Position numbers and translations under genes: made by a program. DNA of 64,000 nt from an uncultured SAR86 cluster bacterium (lineage in GTDB: Bacteria > Pseudomonadota > Gammaproteobacteria > Magnimaribacterales > D2472): NCBI GenBank assembly GCA_902586925.1, contig CACIJE010000001.1, forward strand, positions 458,104 to 522,103, in the 5' to 3' direction. Numbering within the stretch: position 1 is the stretch's first letter; every line of letters starts with the position of its first letter. Under the pieces are notes generated by a model. The model worked only from the letters and a program-made list of their open reading frames with translations, made no database searches and was not told the DNA's origin. Shown one piece after another: positions 28,501-64,000 of this stretch.

Positions 28501-28519
28501 AATTATTGCAGAGGCTAAC

Positions 28520-28686
28520 AAACCAGGTCACCGCTATGTGTTATACCTGAACCGAAAGTTCAGGTGGTGAACATCTTGTCAGATCAGGCTTCCCATTATG
28601 GTAATGCTCAACAATGACAGTGGAAAATCACCTATTTTTTAGTATCGGTTCAAATTTATTAACACATTAGCAAATGAACCAGAATG
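28520..28686 (-). ncRNA. ssrS: 6S RNA
   Basis: 6S RNA binds RNA polymerase holoenzyme as an open-promoter mimic and tunes transcription in stationary phase. On the minus strand between zapA and fau, the sequence has a closing stem (ATGTGTTA near the 5' end with TAACACAT near the 3' end, continued by GGT-CA..TTGCTA with TAGCGGTGACC, with bulges). It also has GAGCATTACC..GGGAAGCCTGATCTGAC and the characteristic hairpin CACCTGAACTTTCGGTTCAGGT, all in the same order as in E. coli 6S. About 165 nt, slightly short of E. coli (184). Ends are approximate. Confidence 0.88.
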
Positions 28687-28693
28687 TATTAAG

Positions 28694-58258: not shown

Positions 58259-58337
58259 TGGTGGGCCTGGGAAGACTCGAACTTCCGACCTCTCGATTAT
58301 CAGTCGAACGCTCTAACCAAAACTGAGCTACAGGCCC
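58259..58337 (-). tRNA. ileT: tRNA-Ile (anticodon GAU), CCA encoded
   Basis: A full cloverleaf folds on the minus strand: acceptor GGGCCTG/CAGGCCC, D-stem GCTC/GAGC, anticodon stem TTCGA/TCGAG with loop CTGATAA (anticodon GAT), T-stem GGAAG/CTTCC with TTCGAGT loop, then A-CCA. The D-loop has 11 bases (AGTTTTGGTTA), two more than usual, keeping GG. tRNA-Ile(GAU) normally sits in the rRNA spacer; here it stands alone between an FKBP gene and a membrane protein gene. The gene symbol is nominal. Confidence 0.95.
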
Positions 58338-61280: not shown

Positions 61281-61284
61281 TTAG

Positions 61285-61366
61285 ATGCAAAGGGGTGGCA
61301 TTTTTGCCTGAGATCTTTTGAAACTCTTTGAACCTGATCAACACAATAGTTGCGGAGGAATTGCAT
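61285..61366 (+). promoter_or_regulatory. TPP riboswitch (THI element)
   Basis: This is a complete thiamine-pyrophosphate aptamer. P1 is ATGCAA (61285-61290) with TTGCAT (61361-61366). P2 is AAAGGGGT with ACTCTTT. P3 is GGCA-TTTT-TGCC followed by the invariant CTGAGA. P4/P5 contain GAACCTGATC and CAAC..GTTG, then the conserved GCGGAGGAA core. The GGAGG of that core is also the Shine-Dalgarno of the receptor gene, whose ATG at 61367 directly follows P1. TPP binding should therefore block translation directly. No separate terminator is visible. Confidence 0.93.
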
Positions 61367-63466
61367 ATGTATGTCAGTAACAAATTTTTATTTTTATTGC
61401 CCGTATTGTTTTCACTTATTGTCTTTTCACAAGACATTGAAGAAATAATTGTTAAAGGTGAGTATCGAGAAAAATCTATCAGTGAGGAAGATTCAAGTAT
61501 TTTTATTATTCAGTCTGAAAAAATTAAGTCACAAGCTATAAAACATTTTCAGCAACTTTCGTATCTTGTACCAAATTTAAATTATGCAGCCTCAGATTCG
61601 AGAGCAAGATATTTTCAAATACGAGGTATTGGAGAAAGATCTGGTTATCAGGGAACACCAAATTCTTCGGTTGGATTTCTTATCGATGACATTGACTATT
61701 CCGGTCAGGGAGGCATTGCAACTTTATTTGATGTTGATCAAGTTGAAGTATTTCGTGGACCCCAAGGTTCTAGAACAGGCGCTAATGCTTTAGCAGGATT
61801 AATTTATATAAAGACTAAAGATCCAACAGATAAATTTGAAGGAACTTCCGAACTAACTCTTGGAGATTATGGAACTCAAAACATTGGAGTTGCGTTTGGA
61901 GGACCATTAAAGAATAAAAAAATGAAATATCGATTAGTAATGAGAACTGACTATGCTGATGGATTTAGAAAAAATATTTACTTGAATAAATCAGATACTT
62001 CAAAAAAAGATGAGCTAACTTTGCGTTACAAACTTGATTGGGAAATTGATGAAACTACAAATATAAATTTTCTTGTTTCAAAAGTTGATATGGATGACCC
62101 AGCTGATATTTGGACAATTGATGGAAGTTTAAATACTTTATCAGATCGTCCTGGAATGGATTCACAAATAACAGACTCGATTCGAATAAAAGTAACTAAG
62201 AATTTAAATAATTTTGATATGCAAAGTTTAACAAGTTCAACAAAAACTGATGTTGTTTTCAGTTATGATGCAGATTGGGGCAATCCTGACTCACATTATC
62301 CATATACCTATGATTATTTTTCTGAAACATTAAGAAAAAGAGATACTTTTAGTCAAGAAATTCGTTTTTTGTCAAAAAATAAGGATTTTTCTCAAAATAA
62401 TCCATTTGAATGGGTCTTTGGTTTCGATTTCAGTAAATTAGATGAATCAAATGTAACCAAAGATGATGGGATTTATGGAGATCCGTCTGATCCATTTGGT
62501 CCATATGCAAGTGAATCTTTAATTTCAAGAAATTATAAATCTGAAAATTTATCAGTTTTCGGAAATATTGATTATTTTTTAACAAATAAAATTAAACTTG
62601 CTTTCGGTTTGAGATTGGAAAATTGGGATTCAAAATACAAAGATTCAAATAATGAATCTTTTAGTCCTTCAGATAATATGAGTGGTGGAAAAATTTCACT
62701 AGTCAAAAAAACCAATGATGATTCAAATATTTATTTTTCAATAGCAAGAGGATATAAACAAGGTGGATTTAATTTAGGTCTTGATGCTACAGATAACTTA
62801 GTGAAACAATCTCTTATTTACGATCCTGAATATTTAACTAATTACGAATTGGGTTTAAGTTCTTACTTAAAAGATAGCGATCTAAATTATTCACTTGTAA
62901 TATTTTTCTCTGAAAGAAAAGATCAACAAGTTTTAATATCTAGACAAGTTGATCCAAGTGATCCTAATACTTTTTCATATTTAACTCAGAATGCTGCAGA
63001 GGGAGAGAACTATGGGATTGAAATTACTTCAAATTATTTATTAACAAATAATTTATATATATATGCTAATTTAGGTTTTCTTAAAACAAAGATAAAAAAT
63101 TGGGAATCAAGAATTGATCTAGAAGACAGATCACAAGCTCACGCACCTGAGAGATCATATTCTGTAGGTGGAAATTTAAATTTCAAAAATAACTACTATT
63201 TAAAATTAGATATTAATGGAAAAAGTAGTTTTTATTATTCAGATTCACATGATAATCAGTCTAAAAGCTATCAATTAACTAACTTAACTTTTGGATATAC
63301 AAATGCTAATTTTTCTGTTGATCTGTGGATAAGAAATTTGTTTAATAAATACTATTCAACAAGAGGATTTTTCTTTGGAAATGAAGCGCCAAATTTTATT
63401 GATACTCTATATAGAAGACAAGGAGATCCTAAGCATATTGGCATATCACTTAGATATAATTTTTAA
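61367..63466 (+). CDS. TonB-dependent outer-membrane receptor, probable thiamine/precursor uptake
   Basis: A 699-residue TonB-dependent receptor. I start at the ATG at 61367; the track start at 61328 lies inside the riboswitch. A signal peptide ends near residue 22 (LIVFSQD). A TonB-box-like EEIIVKG follows, then the plug (YFQIRGIGER, VEVFRGPQGSRTGANALAGLIYI) and a barrel closing with aromatic Phe (SLRYNF). Control by a TPP riboswitch and a PnuC-type permease 5 bp downstream point to thiamine or a pyrimidine precursor as cargo; sequence alone would not tell. Confidence 0.9.
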   Translation: MYVSNKFLFLLPVLFSLIVFSQDIEEIIVKGEYREKSISEEDSSIFIIQSEKIKSQAIKHFQQLSYLVPNLNYAASDSRARYFQIRGIGERSGYQGTPNSSVGFLIDDIDYSGQGGIATLFDVDQVEVFRGPQGSRTGANALAGLIYIKTKDPTDKFEGTSELTLGDYGTQNIGVAFGGPLKNKKMKYRLVMRTDYADGFRKNIYLNKSDTSKKDELTLRYKLDWEIDETTNINFLVSKVDMDDPADIWTIDGSLNTLSDRPGMDSQITDSIRIKVTKNLNNFDMQSLTSSTKTDVVFSYDADWGNPDSHYPYTYDYFSETLRKRDTFSQEIRFLSKNKDFSQNNPFEWVFGFDFSKLDESNVTKDDGIYGDPSDPFGPYASESLISRNYKSENLSVFGNIDYFLTNKIKLAFGLRLENWDSKYKDSNNESFSPSDNMSGGKISLVKKTNDDSNIYFSIARGYKQGGFNLGLDATDNLVKQSLIYDPEYLTNYELGLSSYLKDSDLNYSLVIFFSERKDQQVLISRQVDPSDPNTFSYLTQNAAEGENYGIEITSNYLLTNNLYIYANLGFLKTKIKNWESRIDLEDRSQAHAPERSYSVGGNLNFKNNYYLKLDINGKSSFYYSDSHDNQSKSYQLTNLTFGYTNANFSVDLWIRNLFNKYYSTRGFFFGNEAPNFIDTLYRRQGDPKHIGISLRYNF

Positions 63467-63471
63467 CTTAC

Positions 63472-64000
63472 ATGTTAAATTTTATTCCTGAAATTATTGC
63501 TGTTATGACAGCAATACTCTATTTAGTCTTAGCTGCCAAAGAAGACATAAAGTGCTGGTATGCGGCAATAATTAGTTCATCTCTATACTTTTTTATAATG
63601 TTTGATGCTGGCCTAATAATGGAGTCAATTTTACAAATTTTTTATATTTCTATGGCCATTTATGGCTGGAATCAATGGAATAAGGTATCAAATGAAGGAT
63701 GTGTAATAAGGATTAAAAAATGGAAAAAAATTAAGCATGTATATGTAATAAGTTTAGTATTGATATTGGCAATAATTTCAGGAAAAGTTCTAGAAAAATA
63801 TACAAATGCAGTATTTCCATTTTTAGATGCATTTACAACATTTGGAGCCATTATCACAACATATATGGTTGCAAAAAAGATCATTGAAAATTGGATCTAT
63901 TGGTTTGTGATTGATTCAATATCTATATATCTATTTTTCTCAAGGGAGTTATATCTAACCTCATTATTATTTTTAATATATCTAATAATTATTATTTTTG
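63472..64000 (+). CDS. pnuT: PnuC/PnuT-family vitamin transporter, partial (runs off the right edge)
   Basis: The ORF track lacks it because no stop falls in the window. From the ATG at 63472 the frame is open to the end (176 residues). It has about six hydrophobic segments and the PnuC family hallmarks ISMAIYGWNQW near residue 65 and YMVAKKIIENWIYWFVIDS near 130-148. PnuC carries nicotinamide riboside, while PnuT homologues under THI elements carry thiamine. The upstream TPP riboswitch and receptor favour PnuT. The last few residues are missing. Confidence 0.88.
   Translation, partial: MLNFIPEIIAVMTAILYLVLAAKEDIKCWYAAIISSSLYFFIMFDAGLIMESILQIFYISMAIYGWNQWNKVSNEGCVIRIKKWKKIKHVYVISLVLILAIISGKVLEKYTNAVFPFLDAFTTFGAIITTYMVAKKIIENWIYWFVIDSISIYLFFSRELYLTSLLFLIYLIIIIF

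What the first reader, a model, noticed from the sequence alone, without database searches (positions are those of the whole stretch)
61285..64000. TPP-riboswitch-led uptake operon: TonB-dependent receptor plus PnuT-type permease
A complete THI element precedes an outer-membrane receptor and a PnuC-family inner-membrane carrier in one transcript, giving a full two-membrane path for thiamine or its precursor. The general omr-pnuT theme under THI elements is known from comparative genomics (mainly Bacteroidetes). In a streamlined marine gammaproteobacterium it suggests vitamin B1 scavenging and possible auxotrophy. Tkt in this same window needs the cofactor. What is downstream (thiamine pyrophosphokinase?) would complete the pathway.
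Basis: partly seen in the sequence, partly recalled or inferred. Interest (0 to 1): 0.72.

Follow-up and report, generated by a model that had tools for sequence, protein, structure and literature searches.

The report
SAR86 vitamin B1 uptake operon
A free-living ocean bacterium of the SAR86 group appears unable to make vitamin B1 and carries a three-gene set, switched off by the vitamin's active form through an RNA sensor built into the ribosome-binding site, that should pull B1 through both membranes and trap it; this is a well-supported example of a known kind of system, with two unusual details.

Summary
RF00059 scores 57.0 bits (cut-off 54.3) at 61281-61377, the only TPP riboswitch in the genome. 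It is followed by a TonB-dependent receptor (61367-63466) and a PnuC-family carrier (63472, running past the window to 64041). Beyond the window comes not thiN/tnr3 but a kinase of the choline-kinase/APH fold; a separate ThiL is present. ThiC, ThiE, ThiG and TPK models find nothing. Best reading: import of intact thiamine, phosphorylation to thiamine phosphate, ThiL makes TPP, and TPP shuts the operon. Across 80 genomes of the order (SAR86), 51 have the riboswitch, 21 have ThiG, none has both; PnuT and the kinase never occur with ThiG. PnuT groups with riboswitch-linked carriers, apart from a NadR-linked PnuC. Two details: (i) in the SAR86 leaders read, the Shine-Dalgarno GGAGG lies inside the aptamer core (a SAR86-only U-to-G change), with the start codon at the aptamer's end; (ii) the kinase scores far below the ThiK cut-off. 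The theme is known (Bacteroides OMthi-pnuT-tnr3; omr1 beside a TPP riboswitch in SAR86; RBS-in-aptamer known for TPP). New member of a known kind; interest about 0.33. Thiamine transport and kinase activity remain untested.

The parts
61281..61377 (+). TPP riboswitch aptamer (THI element)
   Evidence: RF00059 57.0 bits, cut-off 54.3; helices kept in 98.9% of cells over 20 SAR86 leaders
61286..61290 (+). P1 5' strand UGCAA; pairs with 61361-61365
   Evidence: sequence; P1 100% paired in the 20-row alignment, with C-G to U-A changes on both sides in 2 rows
61354..61359 (+). Shine-Dalgarno GGAGGA inside the aptamer; its AGG forms the 3' strand of P4
   Evidence: sequence; GCGGAGG in all 49 SAR86 leaders read, GCGUAGG in all 12 other gammaproteobacterial TPP leaders
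61361..61365 (+). P1 3' strand UUGCA, which is also the spacer between SD and start codon
   Evidence: sequence and pair counts
61367..63466 (+). TonB-dependent receptor (omr1/OMthi-like), 699 aa, ATG overlapping the 3' end of the aptamer model
   Evidence: PF00593 88.6 bits, PF07715 44.4 bits; same place in the SAR86 riboswitch loci
63472..64000 (+). pnuT, PnuC-family inner-membrane carrier, 189 aa in full; continues to 64041 outside the window (L002:2576-3145); followed outside the window by the kinase gene at 64038-64859 (L002:3142-3963)
   Evidence: PF04973 165.5 bits; tree with TPP-linked PnuT; gene order

Best explanation
This is a vitamin B1 uptake-and-trap operon. When cytoplasmic TPP is low, the ribosome can load on the GGAGGA inside the unfolded aptamer and the three overlapping or closely spaced genes are translated. 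The TonB-dependent receptor brings scarce thiamine across the outer membrane, PnuT lets it cross the inner membrane, and the choline-kinase-like kinase phosphorylates it to thiamine phosphate so that it cannot leave; ThiL, encoded elsewhere, makes TPP. TPP then folds the aptamer, locking the Shine-Dalgarno into P4 and the spacer before the start codon into P1, and shuts off translation directly with no separate expression platform. Shown by sequence: aptamer, gene order, SD and start inside the aptamer, no match to ThiC/ThiE/ThiG/TPK, presence of ThiL, mutual exclusion of the operon and ThiG across the order. Inferred: thiamine as substrate of all three proteins, the kinase product, co-transcription, repression by TPP.
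For: Riboswitch, and only one in the genome. Receptor, PF04973 carrier and APH/choline-kinase-fold kinase in one run, with pnuT and kinase overlapping by 4 nt. Genome lacks matches to ThiC, ThiE, ThiG and TPK but has ThiL at 234.7 bits, over the cut-off. Among 80 genomes of the order: riboswitch 51, ThiG 21, both 0 (Fisher 4e-13); PF04973 in 50, at one locus each, 49 with riboswitch and 0 with ThiG; kinase 40, 0 with ThiG. Operon and ThiG lineages alternate within one genus (g6) and within families f1 and f2, which speaks against one ancient split. PnuT groups 100/99 with TPP-linked carriers, away from a NadR-linked PnuC. Other gammaproteobacteria have TPP riboswitch, TonB receptor, PnuT and APH-type kinase in the same order. 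The kinase model, made from an 81%-identical relative, is confident (pLDDT 88.5); best PDB match is choline kinase LicA, TM 0.75; catalytic His-Asn-Asp, Asn and Asp are invariant in 35 sequences. Bacteroides genetics support thiamine transport by OMthi and PnuT (PMC5613172). No terminator-like site between aptamer and start.
Against: The kinase scores 45.7 bits against a ThiK cut-off of 299 and matches GntI and APH models about as well. Family f2 (nine genomes) has riboswitch, receptor and PnuT without this kinase, so the kinase is not indispensable or is replaced there. Free-energy folding does not show the SD more open without ligand (median unpaired 0.48 free, 0.50 in the aptamer fold); only P1 differs. 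The receptor's substrate cannot be told from sequence: best solved relatives are siderophore and pesticin receptors. Genome is 94.6% complete in 9 contigs; ThiD, ThiM, TenA, Thi4 and ThiDN were not searched.
Confidence: 0.86

Rival explanations
1. The carrier is a PnuC for nicotinamide riboside and the operon is chance neighbourhood behind a riboswitch.
For: NCBIfam calls it TIGR01528 nicotinamide riboside transporter PnuC, 91.2 bits, over its cut-off; the only solved relative found by sequence is PnuC 4QTN.
Against: Grouped 100/99 with riboswitch-linked carriers, away from a NadR-linked PnuC; never found in ThiG-bearing SAR86 genomes; always behind the TPP riboswitch where the contig allows.
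Confidence: 0.03
2. The operon imports HMP, thiazole or another B1 precursor or breakdown product rather than intact thiamine.
For: In SAR11 a TPP riboswitch lies beside an HMP-type transporter gene (PMC10881298); the receptor's substrate is unknown.
Against: No ThiE or ThiG match in this genome, so precursors could not be joined; the ThiG-positive, ThiC-negative SAR86 genomes, which should need HMP, lack this operon.
Confidence: 0.07
3. The kinase is a choline or ethanolamine kinase or another small-molecule phosphotransferase unrelated to B1, carried along downstream.
For: Pfam Choline_kinase and APH pass their cut-offs; nearest solved fold is choline kinase LicA; absent from f2 operons.
Against: Overlaps pnuT; found in 40 genomes of which 39 carry the riboswitch and none ThiG; same position in about five other gammaproteobacterial loci; dN/dS about 0.15-0.4, so kept by selection. 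ThiL needs thiamine phosphate, and no other source was found. E. coli ThiK belongs to the same fold (own knowledge).
Confidence: 0.1
4. The leader acts through a hidden transcription terminator or an alternative hairpin and the SD inside the aptamer is coincidental.
For: Folding energies alone do not separate the SD's two states.
Against: The start codon is at the aptamer's end in the SAR86 leaders, no terminator-like site lies there, and GGAGG is invariant.
Confidence: 0.06

Closest known systems
Bacteroides OMthi-pnuT-tnr3 operon under TPP riboswitches (Costliow and Degnan 2017, PMC5613172)
   Same: TPP riboswitch, TonB-dependent receptor, PnuT and a thiamine-phosphorylating enzyme in one operon; thiamine transport supported by deletions.
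   Different: Third gene there is Tnr3 (thiamine pyrophosphokinase); here a choline-kinase/APH-fold kinase plus separate ThiL. Bacteroides thetaiotaomicron also makes thiamine.
omr1 with nearby TPP riboswitch in SAR86 MAG clusters (PMC10881298, 2024)
   Same: Same receptor-riboswitch pairing in the same bacterial group.
   Different: That text, as searched here, has no mention of PnuT, ThiK or ThiL; the RBS placement and the trade-off with ThiG were not seen in the passages read.
Direct translation attenuation by TPP aptamers (Barrick and Breaker 2007, PMC2258182)
   Same: RBS lies within the conserved purine-rich 3' region of the aptamer; [quoted passage not shown]
   Different: Here found across a gammaproteobacterial order with a SAR86-specific U-to-G change that makes GGAGG.
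E. coli ThiK/YcfN thiamine kinase (TIGR02721)
   Same: Same fold class and expected reaction; all 35 SAR86 kinases match the model weakly.
   Different: 45.7 bits against a 299-bit cut-off; no close homology.

Membership tests
TPP riboswitch (RF00059) | Covariance-model score over the gathering cut-off | tested here: met
   57.0 vs 54.3 bits, full length
TPP riboswitch (RF00059) | Conserved helices P1-P5 with compensatory changes | tested here: met
   98.9% of cells paired; 4 of 18 pairs changed on both sides
TPP riboswitch (RF00059) | TPP binding and repression | not testable with these tools
   needs in-line probing or reporter
PnuT thiamine carriers | PnuC-family fold (PF04973) | tested here: met
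   165.5 bits vs 27.3
PnuT thiamine carriers | Groups with TPP-regulated carriers, not with NAD-linked PnuC | tested here: met
   branch 100/99; one other TPP-linked carrier (L257) falls on the PnuC side
PnuT thiamine carriers | Transports thiamine | not testable with these tools
   needs transport assay
OMthi/omr1 TonB-dependent receptors | Plug and beta-barrel domains | tested here: met
   PF07715 and PF00593 over cut-off
OMthi/omr1 TonB-dependent receptors | Orthology to Bacteroides OMthi | not tested
   31-39% full-length identity to riboswitch-linked receptors of other gammaproteobacteria only
ThiK thiamine kinase (TIGR02721) | Score over the equivalog cut-off 299.45 | tested here: not met
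   45.7 bits; so 'works like ThiK', not filed as ThiK
ThiK thiamine kinase (TIGR02721) | Choline-kinase/APH fold with HxDxxxxN and Asp | tested here: met
   H164 N165 D166 N171 D183 invariant; LicA best match
Tnr3/ThiN thiamine pyrophosphokinase | TPK catalytic domain (PF04263) | tested here: not met
   0 of 80 genomes
Nicotinamide-riboside PnuC | Clusters with NAD-linked PnuC | tested here: not met

The most novel reading that the evidence does not exclude
In SAR86 the TPP aptamer core has been re-written at one position so that P4 and P1 are themselves the whole ribosome-binding site, giving a minimal switch fixed across an order, and the trapping enzyme is a thiamine kinase family outside ThiK that takes the place of Tnr3 in PnuT operons of gammaproteobacteria.
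Probability: 0.4. Interest if true: 0.48.

Novelty: new member of a known kind. Interest (0 to 1): 0.33.

Why it matters
SAR86 is among the most abundant surface-ocean bacteria and is usually listed simply as a B1 auxotroph. The comparison here suggests three different genotypes in the order: thiamine importers with this operon, apparent full makers (ThiC and ThiG), and a ThiG-only group that should need HMP. That predicts who consumes intact thiamine and who consumes HMP, and it can be tested on isolates. The kinase gives a concrete candidate for the trapping step after PnuT, and annotation pipelines would probably name it a choline kinase or aminoglycoside phosphotransferase.

Tried and rejected
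thiN/tnr3 downstream: rejected, no TPK in any of 80 genomes. NR transporter: rejected by the tree. Energy folding to show that the SD opens without ligand: no difference in SD pairing; P1 is rarely formed without ligand (median probability 0.06) and the aptamer fold costs about 2.4 kcal/mol, so P1 may be the moving part, but this is weak. An alternative P2 extension (CAAA with UUUG) that would compete with P1 appears in the consensus fold but has a median probability of only 0.15: left as an idea. Substrate from receptor relatives: not informative. dN/dS for the convergent gene is invalid (wrong strand was read) and is not used. An unlinked APH kinase in f2 genomes behind panBC fits ThiK no better than generic APH.

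Full report
Observation. Infernal places a TPP riboswitch (RF00059) at 61281-61377 on the + strand with 57.0 bits against a gathering score of 54.3, matched from model position 1 to 105. It is the only one in the genome, whose contig 1 holds the window at 458104-522103. An ATG at 61367 opens a 699-aa TonB-dependent receptor (Plug and barrel domains), and five bases after its stop a PnuC-family protein begins at 63472. The window cuts that gene; the genome sequence shows it to be 189 aa (PF04973, 165.5 bits) and to overlap by four bases a third gene of 273 aa at window-equivalent 64038-64859. Then a gene runs the other way, so the transcript probably ends there.

The third gene. It is not thiN or tnr3. 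Pfam finds Choline_kinase and APH; the best NCBIfam model is TIGR02721 thiamine kinase, but at 45.7 bits against a cut-off of 299, nearly tied with GntI. All 35 SAR86 versions match both models. A model of an 81%-identical relative, built from 29 sequences, is confident (pLDDT 88.5, pTM 0.89), and the closest solved structures are choline kinase LicA (TM 0.75). The catalytic His-Asn-Asp, Asn and Asp are invariant. dN/dS is about 0.15-0.4, so the gene is under purifying selection, though weaker than on the receptor (about 0.1). Choline and thiamine are both alcohols beside a positive nitrogen, so the fold makes chemical sense for thiamine; that is inference.

The pathway in this genome. ThiL (thiamine phosphate to TPP) is present at 234.7 bits, over its cut-off. 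ThiC, ThiE and ThiG give no match and the thiamine pyrophosphokinase domain is absent from all 80 genomes examined. So the cell should need intact thiamine, and the kinase plus ThiL would finish the cofactor. Transketolase, a TPP enzyme, is in the window.

Distribution. Named genome contigs that carry the same kinase locus are SAR86 cluster bacteria. In 80 genomes of the order, the riboswitch is in 51, ThiC in 15, ThiG in 21; riboswitch and ThiG never occur together (Fisher 4e-13; relatives are not independent, so the number is only a guide). The PnuC-family gene is in 50 genomes, at a single locus, 49 of them with the riboswitch, none with ThiG. The kinase is in 40, none with ThiG. The eight genomes with neither are incomplete (60-84%), and some have the kinase or pnuT at a contig end. 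Both genotypes occur within one genus (g6) and within families f1 and f2, which speaks against a single ancient split. Six genomes have ThiG without ThiC and no operon; they should need HMP instead.

PnuT or PnuC. In a maximum-likelihood tree the SAR86 proteins join twelve carriers of other gammaproteobacteria, eleven of them with a TPP riboswitch found upstream (the twelfth, L243, is cut by a contig end before the place where it would lie), and this group (100/99) excludes seven carriers without a TPP riboswitch, one of which is followed by NadR. One further riboswitch-linked carrier (L257) falls with the excluded group, so riboswitch linkage is not confined to this group. Among those other gammaproteobacteria, about five loci also have an APH-fold kinase after PnuT, so the three-gene set is not peculiar to SAR86.

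The switch. In all 49 SAR86 leaders read, the aptamer carries GCGGAGG; in 48 it reads GCGGAGGAAUURCA with the ATG right at its end (the A shared, or one base later), and only G051 departs. In twelve other gammaproteobacterial TPP leaders the same place reads GCGUAGG, and most have the start codon tens of bases further down. The U-to-G change gives a strong Shine-Dalgarno at the price of one pair in P4. AGG of the SD is the 3' strand of P4, and the spacer UUGCA is the 3' strand of P1; P1 shows C-G to U-A changes on both sides. There is no terminator-like site here. The simplest mechanism is direct blocking of the ribosome-binding site by the ligand-bound aptamer, a category already described for TPP riboswitches (PMC2258182). 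Folding energies support P1 as rarely formed without ligand but do not show the SD itself opening, so this step stays inferred.

Known and new. TPP riboswitch, receptor, PnuT and a phosphorylating enzyme is the Bacteroides arrangement, with deletion phenotypes for thiamine (PMC5613172). A TPP riboswitch near omr1 in SAR86 was reported in 2024 (PMC10881298), and SAR86 is called a B1 auxotroph there and in PMC12236431. What I did not find described in the held library is the choline-kinase-like third gene, the SAR86-wide SD inside the aptamer, and the trade-off with ThiG inside SAR86; subscription papers, including the 2002 comparative study of thiamin genes, could not be read, so these may be known.

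Verdict. A real, coherent and mostly known kind of operon; interest 0.33, confidence in the mechanism 0.86.

Noticed in passing
80 genomes of the order (handles G000-G079): SAR86 is not uniformly B1 auxotrophic by gene content: 15 genomes have ThiC and 21 ThiG; six (G041, G044, G059, G062, G063, G069) have ThiG but no ThiC and no TPP riboswitch, a likely HMP-requiring type.
   Followed up: partly
G039, G042, G045, G048, G051, G054, G057, G072, G075: Family f2 genomes have riboswitch, receptor and PnuT but no kinase in the operon; an APH-fold kinase lies behind panBC in some of them (L263). What phosphorylates thiamine there is unexplained.
   Followed up: partly
L002:3944-4384 (- strand): Convergent small gene overlapping the kinase end: weak DUF6538 match at the N-terminus and a hydrophobic tail, conserved beside the operon in the genus.
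   Followed up: no
L074 and L078 (genomes G004 and G009): Mosaic divergence: the two differ more in the receptor (86.7% identity, dS 0.89) than in pnuT and kinase (94-95%, dS about 0.15), suggesting recombination inside the operon.
   Followed up: partly
L246:3327-3965 and L250:3890-4522: In two other gammaproteobacterial TPP operons a SAM-dependent methyltransferase gene sits between receptor and PnuT.
   Followed up: no
L257:4543-6012: TPP riboswitch directly before a PnuC-like carrier followed by a TatD-like hydrolase; the carrier groups with non-TPP PnuC.
   Followed up: no
L094 (G032), L080 (G011): Receptor and pnuT split in G032 and kinase frame broken in G011; decay or assembly error not resolved.
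   Followed up: no
L002:6644-7468 (- strand): Rhodopsin-like protein shortly downstream (by eye a proteorhodopsin).
   Followed up: no
28516-28688 (- strand): 6S RNA, 54.2 bits.
   Followed up: no
58262-58337 (- strand): tRNA gene, 71.1 bits.
   Followed up: no
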